DNA of 64,000 nt from Branchiostoma floridae (Eukaryota; Chordata; Leptocardii; Amphioxiformes; Branchiostomatidae): assembly GCF_000003815.2 (NCBI RefSeq), contig NC_049992.1:8541401-8605400 (forward strand). Direction: 5' to 3'. Positions 1 through 63,010 of the stretch are shown in pieces. The position numbers and the translations under genes were made by a program. A model generated the notes under the pieces. The model saw nothing but the letters and a program-made list of their open reading frames with translations. It had not been told where the DNA came from and did not search any database. Each line of letters begins with the position of its first letter. Within the stretch, counting starts at the first letter, position 1.

Positions 1-3000
1 GAGTGCAAGTGAGGCCTCGGTGTTTGCAAAGTACAGAAACAGTAGCGACGTGGCGACATTCTATTGGCTGGATAATGTTCAGTGCTCTGGGAATGAGAGC
101 ACGCTCGCGTCTTGTCCCCGGAGTAACCAGTGGGGAATGCACAACTGTAACCCAGTGGGAGAGAACGCAGGCGCAGTGTGCTCAAGTGAGGGCTACATTT
201 TGATTTGTAAATAAAAATAAACAACTTGACAGATAATGTATAGTTGATGATTTTTCTGTTATAATGAAGGTTTCCTTTTTAGTTTACTAGTTTTTTAAAT
301 GGCATGGTTTAACAGGTATCTGACACTGGCATATGGCCTCACGATATTAAATGTAAAATCTTACAAGGTACAAAATATGACAGGAATTATTCATGATTAT
401 TATTGTGTATCTTTGGTCAAATAAGTTGGTTTCTAACACAATTTCAATGTGTTTGATTGTCGCTGTTTTGCTCAATCAAAAAGTTTTCGATTTGAACTGT
501 TTTCCTTCTATCTTGAACTGGTTTAACTGTAATATCCAACACAAAAATTGGACTCACTCAATTTTGTTTTGTTTTTGTTTTTTGTTTCCCTTCTAGATTG
601 TGCCAGTGCCTCTTGTAACAGCAACGGAGCCTGTGTGACGTCACGTTCACCAGGCCCTGGTAACTTCACCTGCAGCTGCGCAGTGGGGTGGGCAGGAGAA
701 TTCTGTCAAGGTCATCTTATCGATTTGGATTCTTTCCAATCATTGACAACAATTTCTAAAGAGAATATATTTGCCGAAATATCACAATTCTACTCAATAT
801 CTATCAAAGATATCTAACCTGCATCTGTTTAACCATTGGGCGAAACCCGCTTCCAAATATGGTGTTTGTATATACTCATGTGACTTATGACGTAAGTATT
901 GTTCGCTATTGTTCGCCATATTGGATGGGCAGACCTGTATGTTGGATAACGTCGTTGAAGATACATTTTCAAAAATGTTTGTGTAACAGTAGATTCTTTA
1001 TTGTTGTTTTTGTTGTTGTTGTTGATCATGTAATATCAATTATCAATAACAATTTGCAACAGTAGCACAAGGACGTCCCAGCCTTGATCCAGCACAGCTG
1101 CCTGCATACCTGCCATGCGGGGCTCCACCGCCAGAGGTCCATGCCTGGGACGTGTGCCCTATTCTGCAAAAGCTGAAAGCAGGGAAAGCCCCAGGCCCTG
1201 ATCAGTTGAGCACGAGAGTTTTAAGAGAATTCGCCTATGAATTGAGCCAACCAGTTGCTGACATTTTAAATACATCGTTTAAAGAGGGATACTTACCTCA
1301 GCAGTGGAAGGATGCCATAGTTGTGCCCCTCCCTAAGTGCCAACCTCCCTGCATCAGTAAACTGCGCCCAGTCTCCCTAACGTCTCAGCTAGCAAAGGTG
1401 GCTGAATCATTCGTAAGCAAGTGGCTGTTACAAGACATTAGGACCTCACTCGACCCACAACAGTATGGCTGTCTCAAGGGAAAGTCAACTGCACACTACA
1501 TGGTTAGTTTGACTGACCATGTGGCTAGAAACTCTGATAGATTGGGCAACATCACCACACTCGTTATGACTGACTTTTCTAAGGCGTTCGACCGGATCGA
1601 CCACACCATTGCCATCACCAAATTACTTGAGCTTGGAGCGCGACCTTGCCTGATCCCATGGATATCTAACTTTCTGACCGACCGCCGCCAACGCGTCAGG
1701 TATCGCAATGAACTCTCTACATGGCAGACGCTTTCTTGTTCAGTACCGGTACCACAGGGAACTCTACTTGGGCCCCTAATATTCCTGGCCGTGTTTGATG
1801 ATGCTGTTAGAGAGTCACCCCTTAGTGAGTGGAAATTTGTTGACGACCTGTCGTTGGCCGAGTCTCGACAACACAATGCACCATCTATCATGCAGGAAGA
1901 GCTCGATGACTTCAGTCTGTGGGCCAGTCAAAACCACATGCTGTTGAATGCTGATAAATGTAAGATCATGATATTCTCGTTCATGAAGCTTCCGCCTGCC
2001 CCGCCAATTCTCAAAATCAATGGAACTCCGCTGGAGATCGTGGTAGTTACCTGTCTAGTAGGAGTATGGTTACAATCAAACTTAAAATGGGATACGCAGG
2101 TATCAAAAATGATCTCCAAAGCCAACGGAAGACTCTTCATGCTTCGAAGCCTGAAACGGTTCAACGTTACGGTGGATGACTTGCTTCAAGTATACACGTC
2201 CTATGTCAGACCCGTATTAGAATACTGCGTGCCTGTATGGCATCCCGGACTCACTAAGGAGCATACTGTCCGGTTAGAAAGAATCCAGAAGAGAGCACTC
2301 CGTACCGTGTTAGGCGGTCAGTACACGACCTATGAAGCTGCACTGGTGCGCACCGGCCTCCAAGCGCTGCTACACAGGCGCGAGGACTTGTGCAGGAAAT
2401 TCGCAATGAAACTGGGCCCAGACATGCTCCCACAGAAGACAGGTCAGCTCCATGGACGAAACACCAGAAACTCTGACAAACTCAGACTGGTTAAATGTAG
2501 AACAAACAGATACAGGGACTCCTCTATACCCTACCTTGTGCGATTACTCAACGATGTAAAGTAATTACTGCGATGTTTTAGAGTAATGTAATCCTCTTAT
2601 TTTGTGCTGCAATACGGCGCTTTCAATTACCAGGAAACAATGTATTCATACATTCTTTCTACCTTGCGTTATTCGTGATTGTGTCGCCTTCAAATACCTT
2701 GTTTGATTACCAGGTAACAGCAAAGAGATATATATTTGTACTTGATTTTATCTGTGAATGTACGATTTTAAAACTATAGTTCAATTGCTTCATCCGCATG
2801 TTACTCAGTAATTTTAATTCAATGATTGAGATTGTGATTTCTGTAAGATGATACATAATTCAGCCATTAGGCTGCCAGATATCTTCATTTTCAATAAACC
2901 AATCATCATCATCATCATCATCAATATGTAGTTGTTTGATGTTGAAAACACAGAAGATGTGGACGAGTGTGAACTAGGAGCCTGTCGCAACGGAGCAACC

Positions 3001-6000
3001 TGCACCAATACGGGCGGGGGTTACACGTGTTCGTGTCCGGTCGGCTTCAGTGGTATAAACTGCCAAACAAGTGAGTTCTTACGTCGTTTTTATTATTCAT
3101 TCATGATTCATTACATAATACAATGGGCTTTTGCATAAGAGCAACATAGTTACCATGTATGGAAAGATGTTGGTATTTCATTCTAGAAGACGAGGTCATT
3201 TATTCAGCTTTCATGGCGTAGTGAACGATTATAAATGTTTGATTTTGTTTATTTGTTTATGTTTATTACACTTCCCATATAAAAATGGTGGGGAGACAAA
3301 ACAGGTGATACCACCTCTGCAAGTTGTCTCCCCGAAATTTCAGCTTTCATGACGATTTTAAACCTTTTTTGCCATATGTGTGGGTTTTCCTTGAACGGAT
3401 TCAATGTTGAAATGTGCCAACGATGTATAGTCACGCTTAACTATATCGTGTGATACTTTCTTTCATAACTAAGATTTTTCCAACAGACTTATGTGCCCCC
3501 AGCCCCTGTCAGCATGACGGTATGTGCGTCCCCGAGAGTCAAGGCTTCCGGTGTGTCTGTCAACAAGGCTGGGAGGGAACCCACTGTGGCACCGGTAACT
3601 CCCTCCATTGTACATGTGTCACGTCTGAGTTGAATATAACTGTCGGAATTGTTTTTTTGTTTGCTTTGCATTAATATGTTATTCGTTCCAAGCTCTTTAT
3701 TCTCTTCGCCAAGAAGAGTATGAGATTGCTTGACTTGGGTCTGTATGTAGGTCAACAGCATATAACTCGAGAAATTGTGGATGGAACTTTGTGATTTTTG
3801 GTAGGTGTGTAGCAGTTGTCGAAAGGAATGCCAAGTTTGAAAACGGTTTACCTGGCGTTTTCCTACGGTACTGCAGCGAGCTTGGTATGTTTTTTGCGGT
3901 TTGTTTTTGGCAGCATAAGTCAAAATCTAGCTGGGCGATTTTCACGAAACTTGGTAGGTGTGTAGCGGTTTTGGAGAGGAAGGTCAAGTGCGAAAATGGT
4001 TTACCTGGCTCTTACCTATGGTGCTGTAGCGGGATTTGTATGTAAGTGCGTTTGTCTGTAAGCAAGATAACTCGAGAACCCTTGAATGGATCCTGATTAT
4101 ATTTGTTAGGTGGATTGGGGTTAGGAAAACGAAGGTCAAGTTCGATAATGGGCACCCTAGTGGCTGCCTAAGGTACTGCAGCAAAACTTTTAATTTTGGC
4201 ACTTCGTGTTCTGGACATGCTGTGGTCATGATTTTTGAGTGGTAGATAGCCCTTGAAACAGAGAGTAAGTGCTGTGAGTTTGGACCCCCTAGCGGCTTTT
4301 TGGGAACTGCAGGCACCGATTTCCATTCAAACTTTGGACGAGGATAACTTGAGAAGGTGTAAACAGATCATCAGGATTTTCGGTATGTAGATAGAATGAG
4401 TGATGACTTATACAATGTAATACTAATTATGCAAATTAGTAGCTTTTTGCATAATTAATGAGGAAAGTTCATAAATCCATGCCAACAGCATATAACTCAA
4501 GAAGCTGTGTATGGATTTTCATGATATTTAGTATTTAAGTAGCGGCTGCGGAAAGGAAGGTTGTGTTCGAAAATAGTTGACGTAGCATTTTCCGTTAGGA
4601 CGGTAGCAGGCCGAGTGTGTGCGTCCTTTTGTTTGTGGAATGCATAACTCGAGAAGCCTTGAAAAAATCCTGATGATATTTGGTAGGTGGGTAGGGGTCA
4701 GGAAAACGAAGATAAATTATGATAGTGGGCCCCCTAGCGGCTTCCTAAGGTACTGCAGCAAAACTTATTAACAGAAATAAACTGTGCTCTATATATCTCA
4801 TTTTGACCTATATCTATGGACACAGCTGTTATACAGATGGTTTGCTGGAGGACGCCCTTACACTGGGGACAAAGTCTAAATTGACAAGCATGAAATTCTG
4901 ATTGACCAGGGATGCTACCAGGTCATCTGTCAGGTCACAGTCTGGTTTTGGTAATGTTTGTGTGTTTGTGAGGAACAATAAGACCTTAAAGTCTTAAATA
5001 AAGGCATGATTATTTGGCGAAGAGATGGGTTCGTTGAACTCTAGTTATATATCATTTAGTCATTTACATTGGGACTATTGTATTCTACAGTGCCAAAAGC
5101 AATTTTTTTTAAAGTCGCTTTTGGGGGATAGTCATGGCAATGTACACGAAATCACATCTAAATCAAGGGTTACATACTTCATAAGGTCAGTCAGAATCAA
5201 ATCATGTTTATTTAGAGACCCTATAGTCATACATGTGTACATGTATATGCCAGGGTGTTGAGTGAAATCTAGAAGATTCCACTCGAATACGTAGAATGTG
5301 AATTAAAATTATATTTGTTTAAGGAAAAAATCAGAGCTTTTCAACATTGATTCTTGTCACTTCATATCAATGGATTCGCCCCCCGTACGTGCCAGTACGG
5401 GCGACGCGCCTGCCCTATACAGCCTGAACGTTTTCAGAAATATGTGGCGGAGGACGTGGCCTCTCCAAAAGACGGACAAATTGTACGTACGTCAAGTTGT
5501 GTCCTCAGCTTTAGAGTCGGTACATCACAATCTCTGCCCGGTAACAATTATCTGCCCGTTACTTCCAGCGTCAGGTGTTGTAACCACCTGTACGAAGAAC
5601 CTGATGAAAATAGCCATCCCACGAGGCTATGTTGGGGGTCTCCCGGCAGGGTATCTACAGTTACGGGACCCGTCTTGTAACGCCACCGGCAATGATACCT
5701 TTGTATTCATCTCTACCCCACTCAGGGGCTGTGGGACTAGAAGGCTGGTACGTCAATAGATTTTGATTTGACAATTACTCAATACCCTTCAAAAAAGTTG
5801 TCGGTATCTCAACAAAGTATTGCTATTCAATGTGCGTGTCCACTAGTAAGACTAACGTTACATTTCCAAACCCGGGCCCGGTCGGGCTGTTTGAGGAAAC
5901 AAAAAATAGAAACATAGTTTGGTGTCTTTTATACCATACTTTCCGTTACCAAAAGCTGCCTGGTCGGGCCCCGGTTTGGAAATTTAACGCAGGCCTAATT

Positions 6001-9000
6001 ATAAGTAAGTAGGTCCGATAGAGTAATTACAATAGAAACTGGAAATCGCCGTGCATAAAAGGAAAGTAATGAGGTTCGTTATCTTTTAGAATTTAAACTT
6101 TCAAAACATCCCTTTTATGGGATATGTATGTGCTTTCTCTCACGTCCGTAGGTTACCAGTGATGACATCATCTACACCAACGTCATCACCAACAGACGGG
6201 TTTACATCCGGGGTATCGCTACTAGGATTCAAAGTGTAAGTAGTAACGTTTTGAGTAAACACGCATGGATAGCGGCGTTACCATGGATGTGGGATTTTGC
6301 ATCTACATATACTTTTACATCGCTTTTCATATATCATATATAATGATACTACTGAAACTGATGTGATTGGTGCAACCTACGGTTATTGTCCTTACAGTGC
6401 AATATATTTATATGTAACACCTCCAAACTAACCTGTATCAAAAAAGGTAACGTTAGAATTTCAGTTTTATCGGCTTCGGGATAAGAACGAAAACGGCATG
6501 GAAACTATCGGATACTCGTACAATATAATCAAGTTTCATGGGTACTTATTTTCAATGATTACCTCCATGAAATGTCATGGAGGTTATATTTTCAGAGGCG
6601 TTTGTGTTGTCTGTCTGTCTGTCAACAAGATAACTCAAGAACGAATGGGTGGATTGGTTTCATACGTGGTGTGTTGGTGAAGTGTCATAAAAGCTGGAAA
6701 AGATTAGATTTTGGGCCCCCTAGGGACTTTCCTTGGTACTGCAGCGCAACTTCCGGTTTTGCTATCTTGTGTTCTGAACAAGCTACGGTCACGAATTTTA
6801 GGTGTTAGATAGCTCTTGTGCTCAGGAATAAGCGTACTTGCCGAGATATGACTTAAGCACTACCACTAGGGTTAGGGTTAGGGTTAGGGTAAGGGTAGTG
6901 CTTAGAGGCAACATTGATAAGAGTGTATTCTAGGCGGTCAAACTTGGTATCATTACAAAGGTATGTTGGTACAGATTTGTAATCTGCAAACCGTTTTGAA
7001 ATCGGGTACTTACTTGCCGAGATATGACTTAAGCACTACCACTAGGGTTAGGGTTAGGGTTAGGGTAGTGCTTAGAGGTAACATTGCTAAGAGTGTATTC
7101 TATGCGGTCAAACTTGGTATCAATACAAAGGTATGTTGGTACAGATTTGTAATCTGCAAACCGTTTTGAAATCGGGTGCTTATTTGCCGAGATATGACTT
7201 AAGCACTACCGCTAGAGTTAGGGTTAGGGTTAGGGTTAGGGTTAGGGTAGTGCTTAGAGGCAACATTGATAAGATTGTATTCTAGGCGGTCAAACTTGGT
7301 ATCATTACAAAGGTATGTTGGTACAGATTTGTAATCTGCAAACCGTTTTGAAATCGGGTGCTTACTTGCCGAGATATGACTTAAGCACTACCACTAGGGT
7401 TAGGGTTAGGGTTAGGGTAGTGCTTAGAGGCAACATTGCTAAGATTGTATTCTAGGCGGTCAAACTTGGTATCATTACAAAGGTATGTTGGTACAGATTT
7501 GTAATCTGGAAACCGTTTTGAAATCGGGTCCTAACTTGCCGAGATATGACTTAAGCGCTACCGCTAGGATTAGGGTTAGTGTAGTGCTTAGAGGCAACAT
7601 TGCTAAGATTGTATTCTAGGCGGTCAAACTTGGTATCATTACAAAGGTATGTTGGTACAGATTTGTAATCTGCAAAGCGTTTTGAAATCGGGTCCTAACT
7701 TGCCGAGATGTGACTTAAGCACTACCGTTAGGGTTAGGGTTAGGGTTAGGGTTAGGGTAGTGCTTAGAGGCAACATTGCTAAGAGTGTATTCTAGGCGGT
7801 CAAACTTGGTATCATTACAAAGGTATGTTGGTACAGATTTGTAATCTGCAAACCGTTTTGAAATCGGGTGCTTACTTGCCGAGATATGACTTAAGCACTA
7901 CCACTAGGGTTAGGGTTAGGGTTAGGGTAGTGCTTAGAGGTAACATTGCTAAGAGTGTATTCTATGCGGTCAAACTTGGTATCAATACAAAGGTATGTTG
8001 GTACAGATTTGTAATCTGCAAACCGTTTTGAAATCGGGTGCTTACTTGCCGAGATATGACTTAAGCACTACCGCTAGGGTTAGGGTTAGGGTTAGGGTTA
8101 GGGTTAGGGTTAGGGTTAGGGTTAGGGTTAGGGTAGTGCTTAGAGGCAACATTGATAAGAGTGTATTCTAGGCGGTCAAACTTGGTATCATTACAAAGGT
8201 ATGTTGGTACAGATTTGTAATCTGGAAACCGTTTTGAAATCGGGTCCTAACTTGCCGAGATATGACTTAAGCGCTACCGCTAGGATTAGGGTTAGTGTAG
8301 TGCTTAGAGGCAACATTGCTAAGATTGTATTCTAGGCGGTCAAACTTGGTATCATTACAAAGGTATGTTGGTACAGATTTGTAATCTGGAAACCGTTTTG
8401 AAATCGGGTCCTAACTTGCCGAGATGTGACTTAAGCACTACCGTTAGGGTTAGGGTTAGGGTTAGGGTAGTGCTTAGAGGCAACATTGCTAAGAGTGTAT
8501 TCTAGGCGGTCAAACTTGGTATCATTACAAAGGTATGTTGGTACAGATTTGTAATCTGCAAACCGTTTTGAAATCGGGTGCTTACTTGCCGAGATATGAC
8601 TTAAGCACTGCCGCTAGGGTTAGGGTTAGGGTTAGGGTTAGGGTTAGGGTTAGGGTAGTGCTTAGGGTCTCGGACCGGAGTTTATTTTACGATTTTAGAG
8701 GTTGGCGGACAGCCTCAGGCCGAAGGGCTACAGTTCCGCTAGTAAACGTAGGACGCGAAACTTAATCAATATGGTGGAAAGCCGTTTACTGCTTCTTTCC
8801 GACAAACCTATTGGTATCGTCTGTTGCTTCTTTATTTTGGGTAGACTATGTAGTAAAATTTTGATTTTGGACCCGAAAACTTATTTTGTAACACTTTTTT
8901 GATCGAAGCTGCTTGGAAAAAATGAATTTTCGCAGGATAATGGCCTACGTGTCAGTGAAGCTAAATTCTTCTTGTTTGTCTAAAATTAAAATTAAAAAAA

Positions 9001-12000
9001 TTCCTCGTGATACCTTTTTTGTAATCTCCGATGACGTAGTTTCTTCGAAATCGCATGAAAAACGATGCTATTTTGGTTAACAGGCGAAAAAAACGCATCA
9101 CCGTTGCAGCGGACTAATACAAAAATGGTTTCACCGGCCGACCAACTACTCCTCGCACAAAAATAATACAACCCACGGGCTTTTCAGGAAATACGACAAA
9201 TCTATGCTCAACGATCACCAAGCAATAGGGAGCAAAAGTTAGGGAGACAACAACGCACTTCCGGCCTATTACACCACCCTTCCGCCAACTCCGGTCAGAT
9301 TTGAACTCCGACCCGGAACCTTAGATAGCTCTTGTGCTCAGGAATAAGTGACATAAGTTTGGCGACTAGGTTTGGGATAGCAGGGGCATTTTTGTCAAGA
9401 AGGGAACAACGGATTTTCATGATTTTTGGTATGTAGGTACCTTAGACAATGTTGTACAAGATAAGATGCTAATCATGCAAAATTAGAGTACATTTGCATA
9501 ATTAATGGGATTCTATCATAGCAGTTTTTTCAATGTACATTGTATCCCCTGTCCCGGAAATGATATGGTCTTGACAATTAGGTGGTAGACAGCTTTTAGC
9601 ATCATGAGATAGTGGGCTAAGTTTCAGCCCCCTAACATCTAATTTTGGAACTGCATGGGTATTTTTGTCAAGACATTCCAAAGAAGATAACTGCAGAGAG
9701 GAATGATGGATTGCCATCATTTTAAGCATGTAGGTAGCTTAGGCAAAAATGTTCATAATGATATACATATTATGCAAATGAGGACACTATTTGCATAATT
9801 AATGAGGAAGTTGTATAAGTCCATTATTTCAATAACTTGACTTCATTAAATGCAACAAATGTAAATTATGATAGATTGAACATAAGCAGTTGCCGAATAT
9901 GTTAATTAGTAACTGATTTGCATAATATATGCGAAAATTGCACTGATATTTGCTAAATGATTAATGATGGGAATTTTGTACTTGCCATGTGTATATTAGT
10001 GATGAACATCACCATGCATACACCATGAAAATGTGCAAGTCCTTTGCATAAGATTTACAAAAGCTTGAATATTTCATGGAGGTATGAGGTCGCCGAACTC
10101 TAGTTTTAAGATTAATTCATCTTGCACTTTTTAATAGAATGTTATCATGTGTATACACTAGTAGATGATTGCTTTTACTTGTACTGTTATACAATTCAAA
10201 CCCTTCTGTGAACCTCGCAATTCTGCCTTTCAAGCTGTGATGAGTTGTTTTTTTTTTTCGTTTTCAATAAACCTTGAAGCTTGAAACCATGAACTGTATG
10301 TTTTTTTATCATTTCCGTAAACGTCAGGTTCGCATCACCGTCCAGTGCCGGTACCCACGCGTGGTCCAGGCCAAGTTCAAGTACCAGCCGGACAGTCGCG
10401 TCATCGAGTTCCGGGACAGTGGGACGGGCAGGTTGGGGTTCGAGATGAGGCTCTACGCTACTTCCGCATTCCGACGCGTGTACGACCAAGGAATGTTTCC
10501 TATTCGCGTAAGAAAACTCTTATGCAGTCATCTTTAGCCTTTATATCAAATATAGTTTATTGCAAATTATATATTTTTGCCCATGGGCTAATTGCAGGTA
10601 ACATGGGAGACAAAGTATAAACGTAAAGTTTTGGGTTTTAGACATAGCCATATGGGATGAGACTTGACGCCACTTCCACTTTTCGACGAATGTACGACCA
10701 GGCGAAGTTTCCCATTCGTGTAAGACAAATCTTAAGCTTACGCAATCATTCTTAGGCTGTGTAGACCTAAAGTTTTGGGTTTTACACAACATAGACATAC
10801 GGGATGAGACTTTACGCCACTTTCGCATTCCGACGGGTGTACATATAATGATTTGTAAAGTAAAGTAACATATTCAGAACACACTTCATGCAGTTGCAGT
10901 TTACATAGCTTTTTATTGTTTCCAAATGATGACAAATATCATTTCATGTTTTCTTTCTCCCTTCTCTATGCATTTCTGCCCTTCATTCTTTTTTAATGTG
11001 GATCTATACTACAGGTGAAGCTGGGAGAAGCTCTGTACGTAGGTGTGAAGGTCCTCGGTGGTGACCAGGGGCTGGCAGTGTTACTCCAGACCTGCAGAGC
11101 TACTCCCTCACCTGACCCGGACGACATGACCGGCTTTCCCTTCGTTGTGGCCGGGTACGTACGTGTACGCATACTGTCCAACTGTGATGCCTGGGAAAAT
11201 GCAAAAAAAGCTAGTTCAACGTTTTAGCTGCGCATGTACCGTGTGTTGCATAGTGGGAGTAGTACGGGTTGGTAGTCCAGACGAATTTATGCATTTATTC
11301 TAATTTATTCATAACTAGTTAATTATGCAAACATTTAATTTATGTAGATTGATTCATAACTAATAATGAACCAAGCACGTTTTTTTACATTTATGCGGTT
11401 CATAGCTAATGATTAATTATGCAACTTTTGTACTGTGAATAAATTAGCATAAATTCGTCTGGACTACAAACCCATACTATTGTGGGTGATAGCTATAGAT
11501 ATCTCAAAGTTGAAGACCCATGAGATATAGATAAAACTTCTACACAAGAAATGTTTACAAATTAGAACCTCCATCTTTGATCTTGCGCATACGCAGTTCA
11601 AACTGTGGAGAAGCTTATCATCTAAACTAGGACACATTTGATAAGGTTTGTTGATTGTATATTTTATCTTTAGTGATATCAGTTTTCCCAACATGATAAG
11701 AGAATACACGTACATCATTCAGTTTTGGTTAAATGATCTAATATGTTTACGTTTAATTCTTTTACAAAAGTTATATTCATTTATAAATTATAGGAATTCA
11801 AAATTTCAATTAAGAATTCTGTTTATTTCTGTCCACTTTGCACAGGTGTCCGGTGGATGATACTGTGACTCTTATCTCTTCTCCTGACCTTACAGAGAGC
11901 AGGTTCAGCATCCGGGCCTTTAGTTTCATCGCCGATAGGGACCAGGTAACGTCGTTCCCCACACCAGTAGGGTTGAAACGTGTACATACGTTATACAGTC

Positions 12001-38214: not shown

Positions 38215-39365
38215 GCTAAGCTGGTTCAGTAATAAGCGACTGCTCAGTACCCAGGACAGTATTATGTGCCCATATGTGACTGTTCAGTACCCAGGACAGT
38301 ATTATGTGCCCATATGTGACTGTCCAGTACCCAGGACTGCCCATATGTGACTGTGTAATACCCAGGACTGTATTATGTTCCCATATGTGGCTGTTCAGTA
38401 CCAAGGACAGTATTATGTGCCCATATGTGGCTGTTCAGTACCAAGGACAGTATTAAGTGCCCATATGTGGCTGTTCAGTACCAAGGGCAGTATTATGTGC
38501 CCATATGTGACACTTCAGTACTAAGGACTGCCCATATGTGACTGTTTAATACCAAGGACAGTATTATGTGCCTGTTCAGTACAAGGTGAGCGTAATGTAC
38601 TCAATCAAGATCAAGAGTACTAAGGACTGCCCATATGTGACTGTTCAATGCCAAGGACAGTATTATGTGCCCATATGTGACTATCCAGTACCCAGGACAG
38701 TATTATGTTCCCATATGTGACTGTTCAGTACCAAGGACAATATTATGTGCCCATATGTGACTGTTCAGTACTAAGGACTGCCCATATGTGACTGTTCAAT
38801 ACAAAGGACTGTATTATGTGCCCATATGTGACTATCCAGTACCCAGGACAGTACTATGTGCCCATATGTGACTGTTCAGTACCAAGAACAGTATTATATG
38901 CCCATATGTGACTGTTCAGTACTAAGGACTGCCCATATGTGACTGTTCAATACCAAGGACAGTATTATGTGCCTGTTCAGTACAAGGTGAGCGTAATGTA
39001 CAAATATGTGACTATTCAGTACCAAGGACAGTATGATATGCCCACATCATTCATTCATTCAAGAATGGCATGTGTGGCTTTCAGTACCAAGGACTGCCCA
39101 CATGTGACTGTTCAGTACCAAGAACGGTGTAATGTGCCCATAGATGGCTGTTTACTACCAGGGACAGCATAATGTCCTATTCGGTACCACAGGCAGCAAA
39201 ATGTGCCCATGTGTGACTGTTAAGTACAAGGTGAGAGTTATGTACGTGACTGTTCAGTACCAAAGACAGTATAATGTGCCCATATGTGGTTGTTCAGAAG
39301 AAAGGACGTCAAGTCTAGTTGTAAGACAAGCTGTAACTAGTTGTTCAGTACCAAGGACAGCCCAA
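38215..39365. repeat. Minisatellite, 40-bp unit, ~1.1 kb
   Basis: The unit reads 'gtgactgttcagtacccagg' then 'acagtattatgtgcccatat' (40 bp), with shorter variants that skip 'acagtattatgt'. More than twenty-five units occur, most intact before 38960 and more diverged after. It begins about 70 bp after the CCDC3-like stop and may lie in the 3' UTR. Two larger-scale repeats ('cctgttcagtacaaggtga') at about 38572 and 38972 show higher-order duplication. Confidence 0.9.
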
Positions 39366-62219: not shown

Positions 62220-63010
62220 TACGTACGAAAATATACCATGTATATGTACGTGAAGTGAATCCTTGCTTTGGAGTAGCTATACGTGTTGTTCCGGAGTAAA
62301 AACACTGCTCCGGAGTATGCTCCGGAGTAAGTGAGTAAGCATATTAGTTGTAAGACAGTATAATTGTCATGTATGTACGGACATATACCGGCTATATGTA
62401 CATGCAGTGAAACATTGCTTTGGAGTAACTATACGTGTTGCTCCGGAGTAAAAACACTGCTCCGGAGTAAAAATACTGCTCCGGAGTATGCTCCGGAGTA
62501 AGTGACTAAGTATATTTGTTGTAAGTAAGTATATTTGTTGTAAGTATGTACGTACGACCATATACCATCTATATGTACATGCAGTGAAACATTGCTTTGG
62601 AGTAGCTATACGTGGTGCTCCGGAGTAAAAACACTGCTCCGGAGTAAAAATATTGCTCCGGAGTATGCTCCGGAGTAAATGAGTAAGTATATTTGTTGTA
62701 AGTATGTATATTTGTCATGTACGTACAAACATATACCATCTATATGTACATGTAGTGAAACATTGCTTTGGAGTAAGTATACGTGTTGCTCCGAAGTAAA
62801 AAAACTGCTCCGGAGTAAAAAAAAACTGCTCCGGAGTATGCTCCGGAGTAAGTGAGTAAGTATATTTGTTGTAAGTAAGTAAGTATATTTGTCATGTAAG
62901 TACGAACATACACCGTCTATATGTACATGCAGTGAATCCTTGCTTTGGAGTAGCTACACGTGTTGCTCCGGAGTAAAAAAAAGCTGCTCCGGAGTAAGTG
63001 AGTAAGTATA
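62220..63010. repeat. Satellite-like array, ~150-178-bp units built on the CTCCGGAG palindrome
   Basis: Five units align on 'ttgctttggagtagctata' near 62264, 62415, 62593, 62764 and 62941. Each has two to four copies of 'gctccggagta', including the adjacent pair 'gctccggagtatgctccgg', then 'gtgagtaagtatatttgtt' and 'accatctatatgtacatg'. The unit is AT-rich around the GC palindromes. Confidence 0.88.

What the first reader, a model, noticed from the sequence alone, without database searches (positions are those of the whole stretch)
6833..8664. Telomere repeats boxed by a 10-bp inverted repeat and amplified as a unit
Eleven tandem units each carry (TTAGGG)n between AAGCACTACC and GGTAGTGCTT, exact reverse complements. 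The telomeric run varies in length while the box and spacer are constant. This is not simple chromosome-fusion or repair-seeded telomeric DNA. The boxed run could form a stem capping a G-quadruplex, or the box could be the end of a mobile telomeric cassette.
Basis: seen in the sequence. Interest (0 to 1): 0.78.

Follow-up and report, generated by a model that had tools for sequence, protein, structure and literature searches.

The report
Lancelet satellite with built-in telomere repeats
The boxed telomere repeats belong to a roughly 171-base satellite DNA that lies mainly in the middle parts of many chromosomes of this (apparently lancelet) genome and is related to another satellite found more often towards chromosome ends; it is a new example of a known kind of repeat, not a mobile telomere cassette.

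Summary
In detail: 11 tandem units (6855-8663), all 10 spacers 127 bp, runs of 17-59 nt, always 6n+5; both 10-bp boxes are exact in 8 of 11. It is a small array of a genome-wide satellite. The commoner left box, AAGCACTAACC, has 571 exact box+run matches; the window's form, one A shorter, has 65 (controls 0), so the perfect inverted repeat is the minority form. The arms are no better conserved than the spacer, show 0 compensatory changes in 139 segments, and array ends fall at different points of the unit: no sign of a selected stem or cassette end. Collected sites lie mid-chromosome (21 of 22 merged sites over 30% of the length from an end), while a homologous 200-bp satellite without the run lies more often towards ends; lists are incomplete. 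Best reading: a (peri)centromeric-type satellite in which a telomere-like stretch became a TTAGGG microsatellite. The window array sits in a probable intron, with a 28-bp flanking duplication and a nested transposon-like element. The kind is known (e.g. PaB6). Centromere identity is untested; the main lancelet centromere paper was not available.

The parts
6833..8665 (+). Array of 11 satellite units (127-bp spacer, left arm, CTAGGG(TTAGGG)n, right arm)
6855..6903 (+). unit 1 boxed run, 29 nt between boxes
7031..7073 (+). unit 2 boxed run, 23 nt
7201..7255 (+). unit 3 boxed run, 35 nt
7383..7425 (+). unit 4 boxed run, 23 nt
7553..7589 (+). unit 5 boxed run, 17 nt, boxes not complementary at two positions
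7717..7765 (+). unit 6 boxed run, 29 nt
7893..7935 (+). unit 7 boxed run, 23 nt
8063..8141 (+). unit 8 boxed run, 59 nt (longest)
8269..8305 (+). unit 9 boxed run, 17 nt, same variant as unit 5
8433..8475 (+). unit 10 boxed run, 23 nt
8603..8663 (+). unit 11 boxed run, 41 nt, left box with one change
6805..6832 (+). 28-bp host sequence, left copy of the flanking duplication
   Evidence: exact repeat of 9321-9348 (24-mers at 6805-6809 and 9321-9325); a homologous host repeat on C17 (L074) has it once
9321..9348 (+). 28-bp host sequence, right copy (its first four bases TTAG may instead belong to the nested element's own target duplication, leaving 24 bp)
8666..9320 (+). Nested 655-bp transposon-like element with imperfect terminal inverted repeats (GGTCTCGGACCGGAGTT / AACTCCGACCCGGAACC) and TTAG on both sides, at the array's right border
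   Evidence: 40 scored matches including itself, the other 39 at 91-92% identity on many chromosomes; borders read by eye

Best explanation
The feature is a short, displaced array of a genome-wide satellite DNA (about 171 bp: 127-bp spacer plus about 44 bp carrying CTAGGG(TTAGGG)n). Shown: hundreds of copies, on at least 13 of 19 chromosomes, the collected sites lying mostly in the middle thirds; and homology along the unit to a 200-bp satellite enriched towards chromosome ends, which at the same point has a partly telomere-like stretch (CTAGTCTTAGCCGTAAGTCAGGGGTAGGG) but no perfect run. Inferred: the run arose inside the unit from that stretch and changes length by replication slippage; units spread by unequal exchange and by re-insertion of array fragments (possibly as circles); the family belongs to (peri)centromeric heterochromatin. 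Inferred for the window: an array fragment inserted into an intron of a zona-pellucida-domain gene, leaving a 24-28-bp duplication; its source is not settled (perhaps the C9 arrays, which share its shorter left box). The hairpin is a by-product of short flanking inverted sequence, without sign of selection.
For: Copies: 571 and 65 exact box+run matches, controls 0; 324 exact spacer 26-mers, control 0; at least 353 spacer matches. Placement: 28 sites, 22 after merging, on 13 of 19 chromosomes, 21 of 22 more than 30% of the chromosome from the nearer end; chance of so large a smallest per-chromosome median under uniform placement about 1e-4, a statistic chosen after seeing the data. Sister satellite: 149 matches, 10 of 20 merged sites within 10% of an end, difference from boxed sites P 4e-7; 68-72% identity to the spacer over about 85-98 bp in the long matches; whole-unit alignment. 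Slippage: near-identical spacers 7426/8142 (2 differences) follow runs differing by 6 hexamers. Block duplication inside the array. No fixed ends. Flanking duplication with single-copy homologue L074.
Against: Site lists are cut (one search lists part of 353; searches list the first 100 of 324 and of 571, in contig order), so C11, C13 and C17-C19 are poorly sampled; C1 shows no exact match. The genome search is not exhaustive: one search did not return its own source on C15. Two sites on C14 (18.9 and 19.8 Mb) are near an arm end. Boxed sites differ only modestly from an unrelated repeat used as control (P 0.013). The sister satellite is not confined to ends (10 of 20 merged sites lie beyond 10%). 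Direction of change is not proved: of four sister stretches tested one scored above shuffles for hexamer likeness (0.013, uncorrected; others 0.12, 0.22, 0.76). Source of the window array: within 155 units of 13 sources the nearest are C9 15 Mb units, but for the first spacer the genome search ranks copies on C391, C213, C171, C15, C14, C9 11.5 Mb, C8 and C6 above those at C9 15 Mb. No centromere protein data.
Confidence: 0.7

Rival explanations
1. A mobile telomeric cassette whose ends are the 10-bp boxes (transposon-like unit that amplifies and transposes).
For: Arrays on many chromosomes; window insert flanked by a 24-28-bp duplication.
Against: Borders differ between loci: window left at TACTTGCC and right after GCTTAG; L010/L012 left at ACTT/GCCGAG; L011/L015 right at GCTTACTT; monomer L016 bounded by GTTTTGAA. 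The box is variable and the perfect box is the minority form.
Confidence: 0.07
2. A selected hairpin that caps a G-quadruplex (structure conserved for replication, protein binding or excision).
For: Window units fold better than shuffles (z -3.9, -3.1, -4.4); 129 of 139 segments keep at least 3 GGG tracts.
Against: No extra conservation of the arms; 0 compensatory changes of 139, paired positions 1036 against 1037.2 shuffled; the C6 unit of the commoner form folds at z -1.8 only.
Confidence: 0.1
3. Relics of chromosome fusions or of telomerase-seeded break repair (fusion-type or short interstitial telomeric sequence).
For: Interior telomeric DNA on at least 13 of 19 chromosomes.
Against: In the units examined the run sits at the same place of the same unit (136 of 139 segments with TTAGGG); in the window all runs point one way; no head-to-head pair was seen; the sister family has a partly telomere-like stretch at that place.
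Confidence: 0.05
4. A plain dispersed tandem repeat without centromeric meaning; the mid-chromosome bias comes from incomplete lists.
For: Lists are cut and the search is not exhaustive; P against the control repeat only 0.013.
Against: For C1-C9 the exact matches are listed before the cut and none is near an end; (36 matches each, listed in full) add only one site near an arm end (C14 18.9 Mb); strong contrast with the sister satellite.
Confidence: 0.25

Closest known systems
PaB6 satellite of Prospero autumnale (PMC4273535, passages seen)
   Same: Pericentromeric satellite whose monomer contains TTAGGG repeats; one longer monomer is ascribed to a TTAGGG insertion.
   Different: Plant; 249-bp monomer with seven TTAGGG dispersed as singles and dimers; no single variable run between inverted arms described in the passages; no sequence comparison was made.
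Het-ITS and telomeric motifs as native component of satellite DNA (Chinese hamster, marsupials, Boana faber; review PMC9693754, passages seen)
   Same: Telomeric repeats inside or beside (peri)centromeric satellite.
   Different: Those are blocks seen by FISH; here short runs inside a 171-bp unit, seen in sequence; no FISH here.
Short interstitial telomeric sequences (classes A-E, same review)
   Same: Up to about 20 TTAGGG units inside chromosomes.
   Different: Those are classed by the sequence next to a single tract; here the run is part of nearly every satellite unit examined.
Satellites of about 170 bp such as alpha satellite (recalled)
   Same: Unit length near 171 bp.
   Different: No sequence comparison was made; CENP-B box compared by eye with the recalled consensus only.

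Membership tests
Satellite DNA | head-to-tail tandem arrays of a nearly constant unit at many loci | tested here: met
Telomere-motif-containing satellite (PaB6 kind) | TTAGGG inside the monomer in nearly all copies | tested here: met
   136 of 139 segments (window and 11 fetched loci) have at least one perfect TTAGGG
Telomere-motif-containing satellite (PaB6 kind) | pericentromeric location | tested here: inconclusive
Het-ITS | large block of telomeric repeats visible cytologically | not testable with these tools
   no FISH
Fusion-type ITS | head-to-head telomeric arrays at a fusion point | tested here: not met
   all 32 TTAGGGTTAGGG matches of the window are on one strand; no head-to-head pair seen in the loci read
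DNA transposon / mobile cassette | constant element ends | tested here: not met
   borders differ between the loci where they could be read; several borders lie in N stretches
DNA transposon / mobile cassette | target-site duplication | tested here: inconclusive
   24-28 bp in the window; in the other loci looked at by eye none was clear, and no script tested it
Centromere satellite | binds CENP-A | not testable with these tools
   none

The most novel reading that the evidence does not exclude
This satellite is the centromere-associated satellite of the lancelet, derived from an end-located satellite while acquiring a true telomere-repeat microsatellite, so that telomere-binding proteins could be recruited at the centromeres; the pair of families would record traffic of repeats from chromosome ends to centromeres in a basal chordate.
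Probability: 0.22. Interest if true: 0.7.

Novelty: new member of a known kind. Interest (0 to 1): 0.42.

Why it matters
It gives, at sequence level in an outgroup to vertebrates, a pair of related satellites, one mid-chromosome with perfect TTAGGG runs and one end-enriched without them. That makes the origin of telomeric repeats inside satellites testable (in-place mutation and slippage against insertion) and offers a ready probe for lancelet centromeres. It also warns that TTAGGG probes or telomere-length assays in this species would read these internal runs.

Tried and rejected
Mobile cassette ending at the box: rejected on array borders. Selected stem: rejected on conservation and covariation. 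I first suspected that the right flank 8666-9320 was part of the same element; it is a separate repeat family with its own TTAG flanks. I considered compensatory changes between the boxed stem and the sister family's GGCAT/ATGCC; by eye other sister variants break the pairing, so I make no claim; the sister piece folded (z 0.39) covers only part of that region. A C9 origin of the window array was considered; one search does not single it out, so it stays open. CENP-B box: compared by eye with the recalled consensus only, essential TTCG not found. Contig ends: in 38 end pieces (19 starts of 150 bp, 19 ends of 200 bp) at most 3 TTAGGG/CCCTAA were counted, so the distance to true telomeres is unknown. 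Literature: searches were judged from the listed titles and abstract starts (20 of 28 listed, 12 of 15, 12 of 106); none shown there describes this satellite in lancelets. The paper said to define B. floridae centromeres (Huang et al. 2023, cited in PMC12500494, passages seen, outline and abstract) is not held, so the family may already be described there. My first unit extraction found 36 units, missed most, and was replaced. Rows dropped before counting: sites on unplaced contigs (C148, C171, C190, C213, C219, C227, C233, C391); neighbouring tandem copies were merged by hand; the control list of 21 sites includes the nested copy in the window.

Full report
Where the window lies. The window is contig C14:8541401-8605400 of a 513-Mb genome in 431 contigs. 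Nineteen long contigs of 17-35 Mb hold 94.2% of it; this fits the Branchiostoma floridae assembly described in PMC7269912 (passages seen: 19 chromosomal scaffolds, 94.5% of the assembled sequence). The species is therefore inferred, not given. That paper says the assembly rests on Sanger shotgun reads, so copy numbers in long arrays may be unreliable.

The observation. Eleven units were found, boxes at 6855-8663, with spacers of exactly 127 bp in 10 of 10 gaps and runs of 6n+5 nt. The boxes are exact in 8 of 11 units. Chance expectation for the box in the window is 0.09 against 17 found.

The array in its place. It lies between a stretch with a ZP-N domain match (frame 5307-5759) and exon-like blocks from about 10330 (read by eye), so probably in an intron. 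A 28-bp host sequence at 6805-6832 is repeated exactly at 9321-9348; a homologue of this host repeat on C17 (L074) has it once. So the array was probably inserted and the target duplicated; if the first TTAG of the right copy belongs to the nested element, the duplication is 24 bp. Between array and right copy sits a 655-bp repeat with imperfect terminal inverted repeats and TTAG on both sides (8666-9320); one search scored 40 matches, one being this copy, the other 39 at 91-92% identity on many chromosomes. It looks like a later nested insertion.

History of the array. Spacers 7426/8142, 7590/8306, 7766/8476 and 7074/7936 differ by 2, 2, 2 and 1 positions, showing multi-unit block duplication. 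In one of these four pairs the preceding run differs by six hexamers and in another by one; in two it is equal. Among 155 units from 13 sources, the closest units outside the window are in the C9 15.1-15.6 Mb loci L011, L012, L013 or L015 for all 10 window spacers compared, and the window shares the shorter left box with C9. Against this, for the first spacer the whole-genome search ranks copies on C391, C213, C171, C15, C14 12.47 Mb, C9 11.5 Mb, C8 and C6 above the C9 15 Mb copies. The source is therefore open.

The genome-wide family. The spacer gives at least 353 matches, a spacer 26-mer 324 exact matches with 0 in the control. The box plus run occurs in two forms: AAGCACTAACCGCTAGGGTTAGGG, 571 exact matches, and the window form without one A, 65 matches, controls 0. 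In the full list the window form is on C9 12.7-15.6 Mb (53), C14 (6), C15 (1) and C391 (5). In 139 complete box-to-box segments from the window and 11 fetched loci, 136 have at least one perfect TTAGGG, 96 have 2 or 3, the largest number is 23. The exact 10-bp arms are present in 51 of 139.

The arms. In 155 aligned units the right arm has mean divergence 0.031, the spacer 0.035, and the left arm 0.064, the last raised by the A/no-A difference; 40% of 10-column spacer windows are at least as conserved as the right arm. Of 139 segments, the 8-bp stem AAGCACTA/TAGTGCTT is intact in 92, changed on one arm in 41, on both arms without match in 6, and compensated in 0; paired positions (1036 of 1112) do not exceed shuffled pairing (1037.2). 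Window units fold better than shuffles (z -3.9 and -3.1 on the + strand, -4.4 on the other), the C6 unit less so (z -1.8). A hairpin is possible but shows no sign of selection.

Borders. Left and right borders differ between loci: L010 and L012 begin at ACTT/GCCGAG inside another repeat, L011 and L015 end at GCTTACTT, L013 ends after TTGCTTAGAG, L017 and L018 end elsewhere, and the L016 monomer runs from GTTTTGAA to GTTTTGAA. Several array ends are lost in N stretches and were not used.

Position on chromosomes. I collected by hand 28 boxed sites, leaving out unplaced contigs; merging sites within 1 Mb leaves 22 on 13 of 19 chromosomes. Of these, 21 of 22 lie more than 30% of the chromosome length from the nearer end, median 0.417. 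For 13 per-chromosome medians the chance that the smallest is as large as seen (0.262) under uniform placement is about 1e-4; the statistic was chosen after looking. The nested element, as an unrelated control (21 sites by hand, the window copy included), has median 0.321, 11 of 21 beyond 30% and 3 of 21 within 10%; boxed against this control P = 0.013. Exceptions are C14 18.9 and 19.8 Mb, merged to one. Lists were cut (first 100 of 324 and of 571; part of 353), so later chromosomes are undersampled; (36 matches each, listed in full) add C16 and further C12 sites. C1 has no exact match.

The sister satellite. The first 4 kb of C15 is a satellite of about 200 bp; its long matches to the spacer are 68-72% identical over about 85-98 bp. 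A genome search with it gave 149 matches but did not return its own source on C15, so the search misses copies; C15 was added by hand. There are 24 sites, 20 after merging, median distance to an end 0.110, 10 of 20 within 10% of an end; against boxed sites P = 4e-7, against the control P = 9e-4. C14 21.78 of 21.81 Mb, C4 34.18 of 34.24 Mb and C15 base 1 are at contig ends; others, such as C6 18.1 Mb and C9 16.7 Mb, are interior. In the alignment of five hand-written unit sequences the boxed run stands where the sister has CCGCTAG..CTTAGCC..AGGGGTAGGGTG. One of four sister stretches tested is more hexamer-like than shuffles (0.013, uncorrected), the others not (0.12, 0.22, 0.76). So growth of the run in place is the simplest reading, but decay of a run in the sister family is not excluded.

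Mechanism. Shown: satellite organisation, spread over chromosomes, a run-length change of six hexamers between two near-identical units, an array with duplicated flanks in the window. Inferred: slippage in the run, unequal exchange in arrays, re-insertion of fragments, (peri)centromeric role.

Comparison. Satellites with telomeric motifs in the monomer are known: PaB6 of Prospero is pericentromeric with seven TTAGGG in a 249-bp monomer (PMC4273535, passages); a review lists Chinese hamster, marsupials and Boana faber (PMC9693754, passages), and another discusses slippage, exchange and circles as origins of pericentromeric telomeric repeats (PMC9498494, passages). This is therefore a new member of a known kind. 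Nine searches (titles and abstract starts seen) showed nothing on this satellite in lancelets, but the key lancelet centromere paper is not held.

Noticed in passing
window 8666-9320; L021-L039: 655-bp repeat with imperfect terminal inverted repeats and 4-bp TTAG/TTAA-like flanks; elsewhere also part of tandem arrays with a period of about 1.8 kb (C7 5.23 Mb, C6 8.24 Mb, C13 6.40 Mb).
   Followed up: partly
L054 with L060 (C15:1-4000) and L063-L082: 200-bp satellite enriched towards chromosome ends, homologous to the boxed satellite; some units carry an extra CTTAGCCGTGT copy.
   Followed up: yes
L010, L012 (left flanks): Another tandem-looking repeat (CAACTTTCTCTCC...) borders the boxed arrays at C9 15.1-15.3 Mb.
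   Followed up: no
L009, about 4048-4085: A short insert with its own hairpin (CGAGGGGC...GCCCCTCG) interrupts the left arm of the first unit.
   Followed up: no
window 1050-2564: Open frame of 504 codons with a reverse transcriptase domain (RVT_1), a retroelement near the gene's EGF-like exons.
   Followed up: no
window 38238-38973: 40-bp tandem repeat array, about 20 copies (GACTGTTCAGTACCAAGGACAGTATTATGTGCCCATATGT).
   Followed up: no
window 62290-62997: 177/348-bp tandem repeat with TGCTCCGGAGTA motifs.
   Followed up: no
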